A DNA stretch of 64,000 bases from Conexibacter woesei Iso977N (GTDB taxonomy: Bacteria; Actinomycetota; Thermoleophilia; Solirubrobacterales; Solirubrobacteraceae): assembly GCF_000424625.1 (NCBI RefSeq), contig NZ_AUKG01000002.1:1240001-1304000 (forward strand), in the 5' to 3' direction. The notes beneath the pieces were generated by a model, which saw only the letters and a program-made list of their open reading frames with translations, made no database searches and was not told the DNA's origin. Below are positions 19,974-24,573 of this stretch, piece by piece. Position 1 is the stretch's first letter. Every line of letters starts with the position of its first letter. Position numbers and translations under genes: made by a program.

Positions 19974-20384
19974 GTGAGGGTCGTCGTCCACGTGGATGGC
20001 GGCGCGCGGGGCAACCCGGGGCCGGCGGCTGCGGCCGCGGTGGTGACGGATGCCGCGTCGGGCGCGGAGCTGGACGAGGCGACGCGCTACCTCGGCGACA
20101 GCGTCACCAACAACGTCGCGGAGTACCACGGGCTGCTGCTCGGCCTGGAGCGCGCTCGCGCGGTCGGTGCCGACGAGGTCGAGGTCGTCAACGACTCCGA
20201 GCTGATCGCCAAGCAGGTCAACGGCGAGTACAAGGTCAAGCACCCCGACATGAAGGCCTTGCACGCGGAGGCGCTGGCCGCGCTGTCGTCGTTCTCCTCG
20301 TGGTCGATCCGCTCGGTCCCGCGTGCGAAGAACGCGGACGCCGACGCGCTGGTCAACCAGGCGCTGGACGCCGCCGCGCTCTAG
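19974..20384 (+). CDS. rnhA: Ribonuclease HI family protein
   Basis: 136 residues, GTG start at 19974. The RNase H fold is complete: VDGGARGNPGP with Asp8, NNVAEYHGLLLGL with Glu50, VVNDSEL with Asp74, and NADADALVN with Asp124. This covers the DEDD metal site. The HVDGGARGNPGPAAAA start and short length match the bacterial and archaeal type lacking the basic handle of E. coli RNase HI, as in Rv2228c N-domains. It removes RNA from RNA-DNA hybrids. Its stop shares CTAG with the convergent secreted-protein gene. Confidence 0.9.
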   Translation: MRVVVHVDGGARGNPGPAAAAAVVTDAASGAELDEATRYLGDSVTNNVAEYHGLLLGLERARAVGADEVEVVNDSELIAKQVNGEYKVKHPDMKALHAEALAALSSFSSWSIRSVPRAKNADADALVNQALDAAAL

Positions 20385-21181
20385 CGCAGCGGCGTGGAGG
20401 TCTGCCGGCCGCCCGGCGTCATCGTGCCGGACGGGGCGGTGGTGCTCGGCGGGGTCGTGTCGGAGGGGCCGGCGTCGTGGTGGCCCGGGAAGCGGAACTC
20501 GCCCTTGAAGGCCCTGATGTCGCAGGAGCTCGGGTCGTCGAAGCAGGCCAGCGCGAGGTCGTGGCCCTTCTGGGTCAGCCAGCCGGCGGTGACGGCCTGG
20601 GTCAGGCGGGCGTCGAGCTCGGCGCGGACGGCGGCGATGACGTCGTCCGGGGTCTTGCCGAGCTTCTGGGCCAGGCCGGCGGCGAGATCGCTCTTGATGG
20701 TGTTGTAGTCCGGCTTCGGCGCGGCCTTGAGCTTGGCCCGCGCGGACTTCAGCGCGGTGGCGTCGCAGCCGGCCGCGGCGCGCGTGTGGTGCGCGGTGCG
20801 GGCGACGCCGCGGCGGCCCTTCTTGCCGCCACGCGCGGTGCGCTCCGGGAAGCGGGCGCCGCGGCAGGCCTTCAGCGCGGCGGTCTCCTGCGGCGTCAGG
20901 CCGGCGGCCGTGAGCTGCCTGGCCCGCTCGTCGGCGAGCGTCTGCTTGATCGCGGTGCGCAGGTCGGCGGGGTCGACGCTCAGGCGCTGCGCGAGGCTGT
21001 TGACCGACGCGCCGAGCAGCCCAGCGCCGAGGAAGCCCGCGGGCTTGACGGTCCGGTGGACCGTGCCGTGGCGGGCGTCCCTGTGGTGCCTGCCGCCTCC
21101 GGAGTGGGCGAACGCGACCGCGCTGGCGCTCAACGCGACGATGAGGCATGCGGTCAGGACGGCGAGCAGACGACGGGACAT
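20381..21181 (-). CDS. Secreted helical protein of unknown function
   Basis: 266 residues. A clear Sec signal peptide (about 1-25, LLAVLTACLIVALSASAVAFA) is followed by a His-rich stretch (HSGGGRHHRDARHG). Two helical units follow, resembling small clay-like repeats: NSLAQRLSVDPADLRTAIKQ and GLAQKLGKTPDDVIAAVRAE. Two Cys pairs (KACRGA and GCDAT; ACFDDPSSCD) could form disulfides outside the cell. The C-terminus is a Ser/Thr/Pro-rich tail. Proteins with this helical-unit style are common in Solirubrobacterales; the role is unknown. Confidence 0.7.
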   Translation of the reverse strand: MSRRLLAVLTACLIVALSASAVAFAHSGGGRHHRDARHGTVHRTVKPAGFLGAGLLGASVNSLAQRLSVDPADLRTAIKQTLADERARQLTAAGLTPQETAALKACRGARFPERTARGGKKGRRGVARTAHHTRAAAGCDATALKSARAKLKAAPKPDYNTIKSDLAAGLAQKLGKTPDDVIAAVRAELDARLTQAVTAGWLTQKGHDLALACFDDPSSCDIRAFKGEFRFPGHHDAGPSDTTPPSTTAPSGTMTPGGRQTSTPLR

Positions 21182-21224: not shown

Positions 21225-22067
21225 TCAGGCCGTCGCCGGCGCGGCGGTCAGCGCGATGACCTCGACGCCGGCCGCGTCGAGGACGTCCTGGCCGTCGAGG
21301 ACCGCGTAGCCGCGGCGGTAGTACAGGCGCCTGATGCCCGCGCCGGCGATCAGCTTCGCGCACGGCGGGCAGGGGAAGTCGGTGACGTAGATCTCGCCGC
21401 CGGCGGTGGCGCGGCCGTCCCGGGCGGCCTGCGCGATCAGCGCGGCCTCGGCGTGCGTGGCGGTCGACAGCTCCAGCTCGACGCCCCTGCTGAAGTTCGC
21501 GCGCGGGTCGCCCGCGGCGTAGGGCGCGTGGGGGTGGGGGTGGTGCTCGTTGTGGGCGGCGGCGACGGTGCCGTCGGCGAAGCGCAGCGCGGCGCCGACC
21601 TGGCGCCACCAGTCGATCGAGCGCGCGGCCTCGTCCTCGGCGGCGCGCGCAAGCTCGGCGAGCGCTTCGTCTTCGTGTGCGGTTCGGTCCGGGCGCGGGT
21701 CGAGCAGCTGCACCGTCCTGGTCTTGTCCCAGCGCAGGAACGCCGGGTCGTAGCGGACCGCGGCGCGCGGGAAGAAGCGCTCGACGACCGCGTAGCTGAC
21801 GTCCTCGGCCGGGAGGATCAGGTCCTCGCCGACGAGCGCCTCCGCACCGCGCGCGTCGAGCACCGCGACACTCTCCGCGATGCCCAGCGCGCCGAGCGCG
21901 CGCGCCGCGTCCTCCGGCTCCAGCGCGCGCACGTCCCTGGCGAGCGGCCGGGAGTCGCTGTGCAGGTCCCGGCCCATCACGTACACCTTGCGGCCGGCCG
22001 CGTGGCGCTCCAGGAAGCGCCGGTAGCCCTCGTGCACCACGGGCACGTAGGCGACGACGACCGTCAT
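21225..22067 (-). CDS. dCMP deaminase-like protein with N-terminal nucleotidyltransferase-like domain
   Basis: 280 residues. The C-terminal domain is a zinc cytidine/deoxycytidylate deaminase: ATHAEAALIAQA (His205, catalytic Glu207) and FPCPPCAKLI (Cys233, Cys236). Such enzymes turn dCMP into dUMP. The first ~120 residues are an extra domain beginning VVAYVPVVHEGYRRFLERH. It resembles the first strand-loop-helix of HIGH-type nucleotidyltransferases, with HEGY where HxGH is expected, so it is probably not catalytic. The gene follows the nucleotidyltransferase gene by 6 bases on the same strand, and thyA and folA are just beyond, which supports a role in thymidylate supply or nucleotide modification. 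Confidence 0.78.
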   Translation of the reverse strand: MTVVVAYVPVVHEGYRRFLERHAAGRKVYVMGRDLHSDSRPLARDVRALEPEDAARALGALGIAESVAVLDARGAEALVGEDLILPAEDVSYAVVERFFPRAAVRYDPAFLRWDKTRTVQLLDPRPDRTAHEDEALAELARAAEDEAARSIDWWRQVGAALRFADGTVAAAHNEHHPHPHAPYAAGDPRANFSRGVELELSTATHAEAALIAQAARDGRATAGGEIYVTDFPCPPCAKLIAGAGIRRLYYRRGYAVLDGQDVLDAAGVEVIALTAAPATA

Positions 22068-22073
22068 CCGCGC

Positions 22074-22661
22074 TCAGCCCCGCCGCAGCGTCTCGTCGAT
22101 CAGGCCCGGGAGGACCTGCGCGAGCTTGGGCCCGAGCTTGTCGCCCAGGTTCATGTACATCTGCCGGATTCGCTCGGAGGTCGTGACGGACGCCTGGCGC
22201 TCGATGACCTCGATCTCGCCGACGACCTCGCGCAGCTCGGTGAGCTGCTGGGGCGAGTAGGAGTGGTCGGCGGTGAGGACCAGGACGTCGGGCTCGACGG
22301 CCTTGATCAGGCCCCACGTCGGGTCCCCCTCGTCCTTGAGGTAGATCAGGTCGACCGGCCGCTGGTGGGCGAGCAGCTCGAGGCGCTCGTTCTCCGGGAC
22401 CATCGGCCGGTCCTCGCCCTTGCGGCGGCGGATCTTGGCGTCGGAGTCGACGCCGACGACCAGGATGTCGCCCTGCTCCTTCGCGCGCGCGAGGTACTTG
22501 ACGTGTCCGAGGTGGATGAGGTCGAACGAGCCCGAGGTCAGCACGATGCTGTATCCCAGACCCTTGAGGTGGGACACGGTCCGCGTCATCTCCTCCAGGG
22601 AGGGGACGAGGCGGTCGCTGAAGTTGACGCCCGGGCTCAGGACGCCGCTGGTCACGGCCAT
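22074..22661 (-). CDS. Cytidylyltransferase-like (RfaE2/HldE-C type) nucleotidyltransferase
   Basis: 195 residues from ATG 22661. HIGH motif is present as SGSFDLIHLGHVKYL (His50-His53), then GDILVVGVDSDAKIRRRKG, RPMVPENERLELLA, and a TTSERI segment (160-165) in place of ISSTxxR. This matches the ADP/CDP-sugar or RfaE2-like group, which joins a nucleotide to a phosphorylated small molecule. No heptose genes are present and the organism probably has no LPS, so the substrate is open. The start is chosen because TATATC lies 9 bases upstream. It heads a two-gene operon with the deaminase fusion and is divergent from thyA. Confidence 0.82.
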   Translation of the reverse strand: MAVTSGVLSPGVNFSDRLVPSLEEMTRTVSHLKGLGYSIVLTSGSFDLIHLGHVKYLARAKEQGDILVVGVDSDAKIRRRKGEDRPMVPENERLELLAHQRPVDLIYLKDEGDPTWGLIKAVEPDVLVLTADHSYSPQQLTELREVVGEIEVIERQASVTTSERIRQMYMNLGDKLGPKLAQVLPGLIDETLRRG

Positions 22662-22670
22662 GGCGGGAAC

Positions 22671-22678
22671 GATATAGA
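22671..22678. promoter_or_regulatory. Overlapping divergent -10 elements between nucleotidyltransferase and thyA
   Basis: TATATC on the minus strand (22676-22671) ends 9 bases before the nucleotidyltransferase ATG. TATAGA on the plus strand (22673-22678) would give thyA a leader of about 55 bases. Four base pairs are shared, so the two operons may be expressed in opposition or through one open complex. Confidence 0.45.
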
Positions 22679-22740
22679 CGTCGGAGGCGGATTCGTTCGG
22701 GACCGTTCCGTCTGAGGTCCGCGCCATCATGGAGAAGCCG

Positions 22741-23652
22741 ATGCCGAACTACCTGCCCTTCGAAGAGCGCCGCCCCAGCACCCAGTACCAGGACATGCTG
22801 CGCACCATCCGTGAGCAGGGCGTCCAGGTCGAGACCAAGCAGGGGCAGGACGCGCTCGCGGTCGCCGGCTGCCAGATGCGGTTCCCGATGGCGCAGGGCG
22901 CGGCGGTCATCACCGAGCGCTCGATCAGGGGCTTCGTCACGAAGGCGATCGGCGAGCTGTGCGCGTTCATCAACGGCGCCCGGACGCTCGACGAGCTCGA
23001 GGCGTTCGGCTGCGACTGGTGGGACGCGTGGGCGACCCCGGCCAAGAGCAACTCGCGCGGGCTCGAGGCCGGCGACCTCGGCCCCGGCTCCTACGGCCAC
23101 GCCTTCCGGAACTTCACGACGAACCTCGACGATCCGAGCGAAGAGGGCTACGACCAGCTCGCCGGCATCATCACCAAGCTGACCGAGCTGCCGCTGGACC
23201 GGACCGCGGTGATGAGCCCGTGGATCCCGCAGGCCAACCACCGCACGGCGGACACGAAGTCGCGCAACACGATCGCGCCCTGCCACGGGTGGATCCACGC
23301 GCTGGTCTTCAACGACAAGCTGCATCTGATCCACAACCAGCGCTCGGGCGACACGCCGATCGGCGTCCCGTCCAACATGGCGCAGTACACGGCGCTCGGG
23401 CTGATGATCGAGCAGCTCACGGGCTACGAGTTCGTGGAGTACGTGCACTGGATCCAGTACGCGCACATCTACGTCAACCAGCTCGACCGGGTCGACGAGA
23501 TGCTCGCACGGGAGCCGCTGCCGCTGCCGACGCTGGAGCTCACCGAGGCCGGCAGGCGGGTGACCGACATCCACGACTTCCGCGCGGAGCACTTCGCGCT
23601 CTCGGACTACCATCCGCATCCGAGCATCCGTGACATCCCCGTCCTGACCTGA
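22741..23652 (+). CDS. thyA: Divergent ThyA-type thymidylate synthase
   Basis: 303 residues from ATG 22741, chosen because GGAG sits 6 bases before it; ATG 22729 is in frame upstream. ThyA landmarks are the catalytic Cys181 in NTIAPCHGWIH, NQRSGDTPIGVPSNMAQYT with the dUMP-contacting Asp and Asn, and QYAHIYVNQLDRVDEML. By alignment with E. coli ThyA, the Arg of the N-terminal phosphate loop is Lys33 and the Arg-Arg pair is Arg-Thr, while the QRS Arg is kept. It should methylate dUMP with methylene-THF, and adjacent folA fits this. Because of the altered phosphate site a related hydroxymethylase or modified-nucleotide role should be kept in mind. Confidence 0.85.
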   Translation: MPNYLPFEERRPSTQYQDMLRTIREQGVQVETKQGQDALAVAGCQMRFPMAQGAAVITERSIRGFVTKAIGELCAFINGARTLDELEAFGCDWWDAWATPAKSNSRGLEAGDLGPGSYGHAFRNFTTNLDDPSEEGYDQLAGIITKLTELPLDRTAVMSPWIPQANHRTADTKSRNTIAPCHGWIHALVFNDKLHLIHNQRSGDTPIGVPSNMAQYTALGLMIEQLTGYEFVEYVHWIQYAHIYVNQLDRVDEMLAREPLPLPTLELTEAGRRVTDIHDFRAEHFALSDYHPHPSIRDIPVLT

Positions 23653-24125
23653 TGCTGACGCTCGTCGTCGCCTACGCGCGCAACGGAGTCATCGGGCGCG
23701 ATGGCGGGCTGCCGTGGCACCTGCCGGGCGACATGAAGCACTTCCGCGAGGTGACCGGCGGTGGGACGGTCCTGATGGGTCGCAAGACCTACATGTCGAT
23801 CCCGGAGAAGTTCCGGCCGCTGCCCGGGCGGCGCAACGTCGTGCTCTCGGCTTCGGGGGCCTCGGCGCCCGGGGCGGAGGTCTTCTCGGGCCTGGAGAGC
23901 GCGCTGGTCGCGGCGCCCGACGCGTTCGTGATCGGCGGCGGGACGGTCTACGAGGAGATCCTGCCGCTCGCCGACGCCGTCTGGGCGACCGAGATCGACG
24001 CCGACGTCGAGGGGGACACGTTCTTCCCGGCGCTCGAGGCCGCCGACTGGGTTGCGGCGTCGTCCTCGGAGCCGGTGTCGGAGAACGGGTTCACCTACAG
24101 GTTCGTGCGCTATGAGCGCTCCTGA
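23652..24125 (+). CDS. folA: Dihydrofolate reductase
   Basis: 157 residues, normal length. It shows the DHFR motifs: NGVIGRDGGLPWHLPGDMKH with the catalytic Asp, VLMGRKTYMSIP, PLPGRRNVVLS, FVIGGGTVYEEILP and a C-terminal FFPALEAADW strand. It regenerates tetrahydrofolate, which ThyA turns to dihydrofolate. It is coupled to thyA by a TGATG overlap, and the following HIT gene starts 14 bases before its stop, so these genes are one operon. Confidence 0.94.
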   Translation: MLTLVVAYARNGVIGRDGGLPWHLPGDMKHFREVTGGGTVLMGRKTYMSIPEKFRPLPGRRNVVLSASGASAPGAEVFSGLESALVAAPDAFVIGGGTVYEEILPLADAVWATEIDADVEGDTFFPALEAADWVAASSSEPVSENGFTYRFVRYERS

Positions 24126-24573
24126 GGGCCCGCTCTACTACCTGGAGTCCTCGCGCTCGTCCGAGCAGCGCGAGTACATGGAGTCCTTGGAGTCGCGCGG
24201 GATCTGCGTGTTCTGCCCGGAGAACGTGGAGGAGCACCACGGGCGGCCGATCGAGCACCGCGGCGAGCACTGGTACGTCACGCAGAACGCGTTCCCGTAC
24301 GAGGGGACCGAGGCGCACTACCTGATCGTGCCGGTCAAGCACGTGACCTCGTTCGAGGAGCTGCCCGACGAGGCCGGGGCGGAGCTGTGGGCGATCAAGC
24401 GCATGCTGCGGGAGCGGCTGGCGCCGCTGGCGACCGCGACGGTGGAGCGCAGCGGCGACATGAAGTACAACGGCGGCTCGGTGGCGCACCTCCACACGCA
24501 CTTCGTGGCGCTGTCGCGCGAGCCGACGAGGACGATCCGCTTCAAGGTGTCGGCGAAAGGCACGGAGGAATGA
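24112..24573 (+). CDS. HIT-family hydrolase/transferase
   Basis: 153 residues from ATG 24112, overlapping folA by 14 bases. The HIT motif is HLHTHF near residue 130, and NAFPYEGTEAHYLIVPVKHV is the typical HIT strand region. A Cys pair (GICVFCPENVEEHH) near residue 33 may bind zinc with nearby His, as in several HIT subfamilies. HIT enzymes cleave or transfer nucleotides from dinucleotides or nucleotide-linked compounds. Its location between folA and a dioxygenase, in an operon for nucleotide metabolism, suggests a nucleotide substrate. Confidence 0.82.
   Translation: MSAPEGPLYYLESSRSSEQREYMESLESRGICVFCPENVEEHHGRPIEHRGEHWYVTQNAFPYEGTEAHYLIVPVKHVTSFEELPDEAGAELWAIKRMLRERLAPLATATVERSGDMKYNGGSVAHLHTHFVALSREPTRTIRFKVSAKGTEE

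What the first reader, a model, noticed from the sequence alone, without database searches (positions are those of the whole stretch)
21225..22067. dCMP-deaminase domain fused to a degenerate nucleotidyltransferase-like domain, next to a complete nucleotidyltransferase
The N-terminal ~120 residues begin with a strand-loop-helix like the HIGH superfamily but with HEGY instead of HxGH. The neighbouring gene has the intact HLGH. This suggests a pseudo-enzyme/enzyme pair, possibly a heteromer in which the deaminase acts on a nucleotide held or made by the partner.
Basis: inference. Interest (0 to 1): 0.5.

Follow-up and report, generated by a model that had tools for sequence, protein, structure and literature searches.

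The report
Deaminase–nucleotidyltransferase pair in thymidylate cassette
Two adjacent bacterial genes, a deaminase with an altered nucleotidyltransferase domain and a normal nucleotidyltransferase, belong to a conserved five-gene set that probably makes the DNA building block thymidylate by a variant route.

Summary
The minus-strand gene 21225-22067 encodes 280 residues: ~130-270 are a dCMP-deaminase domain; residues 1-122 fold confidently (pLDDT 89.9) as a nucleotidyltransferase (NT) domain (13 of the 14 PDB entries at Z ≥ 8 are NT-family). HxGH reads HEGY. Sequence profiles alone do not show the kinship. HxGY is invariant in 50 rows, so the domain is conserved, not decaying.

Of 49 relatives, 48 have the intact NT upstream, 47 a ThyA, 46 an HIT protein, 43 a DHFR, in Solirubrobacterales and Patescibacteria. 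Five encode DHFR-HIT fusions. Carriers mostly lack dCTP deaminase and often ThyX. A second patescibacterial cassette has two NT domains in one protein, the first altered in 7 of 9, with HIT directly after it in those 7.

Best reading: a self-contained dCMP→dUMP→dTMP cassette in which NT and HIT make and break a transient nucleotidyl conjugate docked by the altered domain. The cassette function is well supported; the conjugate step is inference; complex formation was not testable here. Paper searches found no description (open-access library, one search listed 20 of 301).

The parts
21225..22067 (-). two-domain deaminase gene (280 aa)
   Evidence: ORF; PF00383; full-length relatives
21702..22067 (-). 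N-terminal NT-like domain (residues 1-122)
   Evidence: AF2 pLDDT 89.9; 14 PDB entries at Z 8 or more, 13 of them NT-family by title or (8 of these are one protein, P. falciparum CCT), the other (3do8) of unstated function; Foldseek best HldC E 4.4e-3
22023..22034 (-). HEGY (residues 12-15), in place of HxGH
   Evidence: H12, G14, Y15 invariant in 50 of 50 rows
21723..21740 (-). FLRWDK motif (residues 110-115), conserved end of the NT-like domain
   Evidence: F, L, R, W each in 90% or more of 50 rows
21225..21674 (-). dCMP-deaminase domain (residues ~132-280)
   Evidence: PF00383; dCMP deaminases fill the first 8 rows by VIA-align, Z 15.9-17.7
21447..21455 (-). HAE (residues 205-207), zinc ligand and proton shuttle
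   Evidence: H205 and E207 in 56 of 56 rows; role recalled
21360..21374 (-). PCPPC (residues 232-236), zinc cysteines
   Evidence: C233 and C236 each in 55 of 56 rows; role recalled
22074..22730 (-). intact nucleotidyltransferase gene; likely true start near 22661
   Evidence: PF01467; rfaE_dom_II E 8e-33, 113.3 bits, under its cut-off of 181.5
22503..22514 (-). HLGH (residues 73-76)
   Evidence: H73, G75, H76 invariant in 44 of 44 rows
22729..23652 (+). divergent ThyA-type thymidylate synthase; possible start 22741
   Evidence: PF00303 E 1.9e-59; Cys185 and Asn216 invariant in 36 of 36 rows
23652..24125 (+). dihydrofolate reductase
   Evidence: PF00186 E 1.1e-47; fused to HIT in 5 of 49 relatives
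24112..24573 (+). HIT-family hydrolase/transferase
   Evidence: PF01230 E 7.6e-6 (given as ORF 24052-24573); H126 and H128 invariant in 32 of 32 rows

Best explanation
The gene belongs to a self-contained thymidylate cassette: NT + [NT-like]-deaminase + HIT + ThyA + DHFR. It turns a deoxycytidine nucleotide into dUMP (deaminase) and dTMP (ThyA, with DHFR recycling folate), standing in for dCTP deaminase and often for ThyX. The intact NT joins the deoxynucleotide to a partner through a phosphoanhydride (for example ATP + dCMP giving App-dC, or dCTP + X-P giving dCDP-X). The HxGY domain of the deaminase binds that conjugate and presents the cytosine to the zinc site. The HIT protein later cleaves the anhydride and frees dUMP or dTMP. 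Shown by computation: fold, linkage, intact catalytic motifs, co-occurrence with lack of Dcd/ThyX. Inferred: substrates, the conjugate, and complex formation.
For: Five-gene linkage in two phyla: of 49 loci, NT in 48, ThyA 47, HIT 46, DHFR 43; L010 and L038, which lack most, are cut by contig ends near the deaminase. The deaminase gene directly follows NT: -4 to +6 bases in 41 of 54 junctions. DHFR-HIT fusions in 5 of 49, plus L077. NT-superfamily fold of residues 1-122. Full-length dCTP deaminase in 1 of 7 carriers versus 47 of 54 non-carriers among relatives (Fisher 2e-4), in good genomes 1 of 4 versus 40 of 42 (0.0025), and in 2 of 41 patescibacterial (or untitled) carriers versus 90 of 148 sampled non-carriers (Fisher values). 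The 4 of 61 relatives without ThyX are all carriers. A second cassette has NT-NT proteins (first HxGH altered in 7 of 9), HIT directly after them in those 7, a single-domain deaminase in 5 and a ThyA-like protein. NT and HIT have opposite chemistry (recalled) and intact motifs. In cassette ThyAs the counterparts of two phosphate-binding arginines read K or Q, and T, in nearly all rows (my reading, roles recalled), compatible with a less charged substrate.
Against: No substrate is known and no complex was modelled. A plain dCMP deaminase would also explain lack of Dcd. dUMP can also come from UDP reduction plus dUTPase (recalled), and 4 of 7 carriers among relatives have a strong dUTPase match. 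Three of the four ThyX-less carriers are incomplete bins (65-79%); only G017 is over 90% complete. ThyX background in Patescibacteria was not measured. Of 20 other patescibacterial deaminase loci read (of 53 with a deaminase-only match) none has NT or HIT in the stretch, while 4 lie beside thyA-dhfr, so NT and HIT are not needed for ordinary dCMP deamination. G012 keeps Dcd and ThyX, G000 and G001 a single ThyX, G061 the double ThyX. Altered phosphate arginines also occur in 3 of 5 non-cassette ThyAs aligned. In two type II genomes both NT domains are intact and lie apart from HIT.
Confidence: 0.38

Rival explanations
1. Same thymidylate cassette, but NT, the HxGY domain and HIT form a control circuit: NT makes a small nucleotidyl signal, HIT destroys it, and the HxGY domain of the deaminase senses it, replacing the dCTP/dTTP control of ordinary dCMP deaminases.
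For: Writer/eraser chemistry in one cassette (recalled); a conserved but altered domain fused to the deaminase suits a sensor; intact NT and HIT motifs. That ordinary dCMP deaminases are allosteric is recalled; a dTTP complex is in the PDB list (5c2o).
Against: In the second cassette the altered domain is fused to the NT, not to the deaminase. HIT is fused to DHFR, not to the deaminase.
Confidence: 0.27
2. Ordinary dCMP deaminase in a thymidylate gene cluster; the N-terminal domain is only a structural or oligomerisation part, and NT and HIT serve another pathway.
For: Deaminase domain is closest to dCMP deaminases. Patescibacteria have thyA-dhfr-deaminase clusters without NT or HIT (4 of 20 regions).
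Against: NT in 48 of 49 and HIT in 46 of 49 loci, DHFR-HIT fusions, invariant HxGY and near-invariant FLRW, NT plus altered NT pairing again in a second cassette.
Confidence: 0.2
3. NT, HIT and the deaminase make a special pterin- or flavin-like cofactor used by the ThyA of the cassette, rather than dUMP.
For: Type II ThyA-like proteins carry MtrA and PterinBD-DUF4346 matches. NT shows a weak FAD-synthetase match under cut-off. RibD-type deaminases share the fold.
Against: Best structural matches of the deaminase are dCMP deaminases rather than RibD; carriers mostly lack dCTP deaminase; type I ThyA is a plain ThyA with a nearby DHFR.
Confidence: 0.08

Closest known systems
dCMP deaminase (cyanophage S-TIM5, T4, Streptococcus mutans, human; PF00383)
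   Same: Zinc deaminase domain with HAE and PCxxC; best PDB matches by sequence and structure
   Different: 122-residue NT-like domain at the N terminus; conserved GDPRxNF stretch before HAE; NT gene directly upstream
HldE C-domain / HldC / TagD nucleotidyltransferases (PF01467)
   Same: Partner NT matches rfaE_dom_II and HldC; the NT-like domain matches TagD and HldC folds
   Different: rfaE_dom_II cut-off not reached (113.3 of 181.5 bits); genomic setting is thymidylate synthesis; second His of HxGH is Tyr in the fused domain
Ethanolamine-phosphate cytidylyltransferase (two NT domains in one protein)
   Same: Pair of one active and one inactive NT domain: the title of a 2013 Plasmodium ECT paper, seen only in the reference list of PMC6060094, says only one of the two domains is active
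   Different: Lipid synthesis (recalled). Here the altered domain is fused to a deaminase (type I)
Dcd + dUTPase + ThyX/ThyA routes to dTMP (PMC10733785: listing, abstract start and one passage seen)
   Same: Same end product expected
   Different: Cassette carriers mostly lack Dcd and often ThyX; extra NT and HIT parts
Anti-phage dCTP deaminase (NF041025; PADLOC dCTPase)
   Same: Deaminase domain scores E 6.4e-16 and 7e-19
   Different: 58.2 of 400 bits needed; chromosomal metabolic cassette; no relative confirmed in viral contigs

Membership tests
dCMP/cytidine deaminase superfamily (PF00383) | Zn site HxE + PCxxC in the deaminase fold | tested here: met
dCMP deaminase (by function) | Deaminates dCMP | not testable with these tools
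   only similarity and co-occurrence with lack of Dcd
HxGH nucleotidyltransferase superfamily: partner gene | PF01467 above cut-off, intact HxGH | tested here: met
HldE-type heptose-1-phosphate adenylyltransferase: partner gene | TIGR02199 score at or above its cut-off | tested here: not met
   113.3 bits against 181.5
NT superfamily: N-terminal domain | NT alpha/beta fold | tested here: met
   13 of 14 entries at Z 8 or more are NT-family, the other (3do8) of unstated function; best 2b7l Z 9.2, rmsd 3.4, 104 aligned. On a predicted model; Foldseek best E 4.4e-3
NT superfamily: N-terminal domain | Intact HxGH | tested here: not met
   HxGY in 50 of 50 rows
NT superfamily: N-terminal domain | Significant sequence-profile match to an NT | tested here: not met
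   no NT family among Pfam matches of 50 members; hhalign score 20.2 versus 18.4 for HIT and 17.8 for DHFR, 1 of 60 shuffles as high
ThyA thymidylate synthase | PF00303 above cut-off, catalytic Cys | tested here: met
   E 1.9e-59; C185 in 36 of 36 rows; which Cys is catalytic is recalled
HIT superfamily | HxHx(H/Q) motif | tested here: met
   H126, H128 in 32 of 32; third position H 24, Q 8
Anti-phage dCTP deaminase | NF041025 cut-off | tested here: not met
   58.2 of 400 bits

The most novel reading that the evidence does not exclude
A categorically new way to thymidylate: the C to U (and perhaps U to T) changes are made while the deoxynucleotide is tied to a carrier by a nucleotidyltransferase, docked by an altered NT domain, and released by an HIT hydrolase, so that free deoxyuridine nucleotides are kept low. 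Two cassettes of this logic exist in Patescibacteria, and one of them also in Solirubrobacterales.
Probability: 0.28. Interest if true: 0.85.

Novelty: new variant of a known kind. Interest (0 to 1): 0.6.

Why it matters
Thymidylate synthesis is a core pathway with few known variants. A conserved cassette in small-genome Patescibacteria and in soil Actinomycetota that stands in for dCTP deaminase and often ThyX, and brings a nucleotidyltransferase pair and an HIT enzyme, suggests an undescribed step or control between dCMP and dTMP. It also gives five co-occurring proteins that can be expressed and assayed together.

Tried and rejected
Rejected: defence gene. Only a generic deaminase-domain match in PADLOC; no relative confirmed in viral contigs (43 pattern stretches, none confirmed); the listed phage hits (15 of 17) cover the deaminase domain only, and 0 of 17 records reach 80% coverage.

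Weak or useless: profile-profile comparison of the N-terminal domain with NT is not significant on its own. Score 20.2 versus 18.4 (HIT) and 17.8 (DHFR), one of 60 column shuffles as high; 17.3 and 24.7 against the first and second domain of type II proteins; all three NT alignments start at the HxG motif. The same domain gave no NT family in Pfam and no PDB sequence match below E 0.36. Full-length fold searches were filled by the deaminase domain, so the N-terminal domain was predicted alone. Foldseek on that model had no match at E 0.001 or better; its best three rows are HldC chains, later rows mix dehydrogenases and others. In one search, 47 of 50 rows are NT-family by title or; the others are 3do8 (unstated function), 1efp and 8q3y.

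Altered phosphate-binding arginines in ThyA were considered as proof of a conjugated substrate and kept only as a hint: the counterpart of R21 is K in 3 Actinomycetota rows and Q in 11 of 13 patescibacterial rows, that of R127 is T in 15 of 16, but 3 of 5 non-cassette ThyAs vary there too (my reading). Residue roles in ThyA and HIT are recalled. The ThyA tree puts the Actinomycetota cassette clade inside the patescibacterial cassette clade, with modest support (93/77) at a key fork and long-branch warnings; one cassette ThyA (L086) falls with the outgroup. It hints at transfer but does not show it.

Caveats on counts: Fisher values ignore shared ancestry and genome completeness except where stated. 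Completeness of genomes reached through loci is not given. Nine of the 37 non-actinobacterial loci are titled only 'bacterium' or 'uncultured bacterium'. Partial DCD matches (profile positions ~60-152) were counted as dUTPase-like, not as Dcd; the weak match in G008/G067 (1.2e-4) was counted as absent; split or shorter DCD matches in G007, G011, G019, G025 and G033 were counted as present. One search used E 1e-12, E 1e-3 (both Dcd-positive carriers there pass 1e-12). One search also matched 5 relatives in the deaminase domain only; these are counted as non-carriers. The 45 genomes include G067, which shares a match place with relative G008, and G062 (L003), whose cassette scores match relative G005. 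L052-L055 look like repeats of L003, L011, L015 and L004, so the 54 junctions count them twice; the 49-locus counts do not. Of the three junction gaps over 140 bases, two (L007, L008) come from my start-codon choice, one (L019) is real. In one search, 20 of the 53 deaminase-only genomes were read besides L085; two others read later (L140, L147) do have HIT beside the deaminase. Alignments A1-A5 use 50, 44, 36, 32 and 50 rows, chosen from up to 56 by length and start quality.

Full report
What is there. The gene 21225-22067 (-) encodes 280 residues. Pfam finds only deaminase families (PF00383, residues 133-250, E 1.8e-10). Residues 1-122 have no Pfam match in the window protein and no consistent one among 50 homologues. 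Six bases upstream lies an intact nucleotidyltransferase (NT) gene, 22074-22730 (-), PF01467 with HLGH. Divergently, on the + strand, follow a ThyA-type thymidylate synthase (22729-23652), DHFR (23652-24125) and an HIT protein (24112-24573).

The N-terminal domain. AlphaFold2 with 50 homologues gives pLDDT 90.3 for the whole protein and 89.9 for residues 1-122 alone, an alternating strand-helix fold with H12 just before the first helix. VIA-align puts CTP:glycerol-3-phosphate cytidylyltransferase first (2b7l, Z 9.2, rmsd 3.4, 104 aligned). Of the 14 entries at Z 8 or more, 13 are NT-family by title or (8 of them one protein, P. falciparum CCT) and one, 3do8, is of unstated function; of the 50 rows, 47 are NT-family. 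Foldseek ranks HldC first but only at E 4.4e-3. Sequence profiles are not significant, although the alignments start at the HxG motif. P9, H12, G14, Y15 and R47 are invariant in 50 rows, and F110-W113 nearly so. A decaying domain would not look like this; it probably binds a ligand. Whether it is catalytically dead is unknown.

Linkage. A genome scan found 49 loci: 12 Actinomycetota (Solirubrobacterales and similar, including two Conexibacter isolates and Solirubrobacter soli DSM 22325, and one Microthrixaceae MAG) and 37 Patescibacteria or records titled only 'bacterium'. Of the 49: NT in 48, ThyA 47, HIT 46, DHFR 43. L010 and L038, which lack most parts, are cut by contig ends near the deaminase. 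The deaminase gene directly follows NT, within -4 to +6 bases in 41 of 54 junctions. In 5 of 49 loci, and in L077, DHFR and HIT are one protein; 20 of 49 have a second HIT frame. Among 61 genomes of the source's kin (itself included), 7 carry the full-length protein and 5 more match the deaminase domain only. In an even sample of 153 genomes of the phylum of a patescibacterial carrier (L016), 5 including that centre genome carry it, of 58 with any match.

Function of the cassette. ThyX is missing from only 4 of 61 relatives, and all 4 are carriers; three of them are 65-79% complete, G017 is 96%. The only strong ThyA matches among these relatives are those of the 7 cassettes. Full-length dCTP deaminase is present in 1 of 7 carriers and 47 of 54 non-carriers (Fisher 2e-4), or in 1 of 4 against 40 of 42 among genomes at least 90% complete and at most 5% contaminated (0.0025). 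Of 45 carrier genomes reached through loci, 1 has ThyX over the cut-off and 2 have full-length Dcd. In the patescibacterial sample Dcd matches at E 1e-12 in 90 of 153 genomes, but in 0 of the 5 carriers (Fisher 0.011). Pooled, 2 of 41 carriers against 90 of 148 (shared ancestry not corrected). The ThyX background of Patescibacteria was not measured. Exceptions: G012 keeps Dcd and ThyX, G000 and G001 keep a single ThyX, G061 keeps a double ThyX. The cassette therefore very likely supplies dTMP from deoxycytidine nucleotides.

A second cassette. Of the 53 patescibacterial genomes with a deaminase-only match I read 21 regions: only L085 has NT and HIT; four others lie beside thyA and dhfr. L085 encodes a 408-residue protein with two NT domains, then HIT, deaminase, and a 521-residue protein with MtrA, ThyA and PterinBD-DUF4346 matches. 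A search of 286 genomes found 9 with such NT-NT proteins. The second domain has an intact HxGH in all 9. The first is altered (HCDH, NPGH, NPDH, HSGQ) in 7, and these are the 7 where HIT follows directly. The deaminase follows HIT in 5 of these; in L142 the contig ends after HIT, and in L139 a frame resembling the ThyA-like protein follows instead. The ThyA-like protein was checked by Pfam in L085, L144, L145 and L146 (in L145 the MtrA and ThyA scores are just under cut-off). In L140 and L141 both domains are intact and the gene lies apart from HIT and deaminase, which are adjacent to each other elsewhere in the same genomes (L140, L147). So an intact NT plus an altered NT domain, with HIT, a deaminase and a ThyA-like enzyme, occurs in two separate architectures.

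Mechanism. NT enzymes make, and HIT enzymes break, nucleotidyl phosphoanhydrides (recalled). Both keep their motifs here: HxGH in 44 of 44 rows; H126 and H128 in 32 of 32 rows. The simplest use is a transient conjugate of the deoxynucleotide: made by NT, held by the HxGY domain, deaminated, and released by HIT before or after ThyA. The NT resembles the adenylyltransferase domain of HldE most closely (below cut-off), which slightly favours an adenylyl handle. In cassette ThyAs the counterparts of two phosphate-binding arginines read K or Q, and T, in nearly all rows (my reading, roles recalled), which would suit a less charged substrate, but 3 of 5 other CPR ThyAs vary there too. A control circuit is the main rival.

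Literature. Searches combining Patescibacteria/CPR, thymidylate synthase, dCMP/dCTP deaminase, nucleotidyltransferase, HIT/histidine triad, ThyX and DUF4346 listed no paper whose title or abstract start describes this cassette; searches returned none, one search listed 20 of 301. The library is open-access only. Papers: PMC10733785 seen as listing, abstract start and one passage; PMC6060094 as listing and passages, including reference titles on two-domain cytidylyltransferases; others as listings only.

Noticed in passing
L085:3279-7226; also L139, L142-L146: Second patescibacterial cassette: tandem NT-NT protein with the first HxGH altered, HIT, single-domain deaminase (not seen in L139 and L142), and an MtrA-ThyA-PterinBD protein (not seen in L142, where the contig ends).
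   Followed up: partly
L072:1135-2706 (-), source genome G000 contig C2 near 897 kb: A 523-residue ThyA + PterinBD-DUF4346 protein also lies in the source genome, with no match to the cassette profiles in the 18 kb around it.
   Followed up: partly
42 of 54 non-carrier relatives, e.g. G002:C1:1292312-1293577: Most relatives without the cassette have two ThyX matches, in one open frame of about 530-950 residues in the rows I looked at (a tandem ThyX); none of the 7 carriers among these relatives does, but carrier G061 does.
   Followed up: no
L012, L033, L040, L043, L049, L077: DHFR-HIT fusion proteins of about 307-326 residues.
   Followed up: partly
window 20381-21181 (-): 266-residue protein with a signal-peptide-like start (by eye) and no Pfam match above cut-off, starting 43 bases after the deaminase gene on the same strand.
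   Followed up: no
L119:616-2064 (+): NT of the cassette carries about 275 extra N-terminal residues in an open frame (482 aa); function unknown.
   Followed up: no
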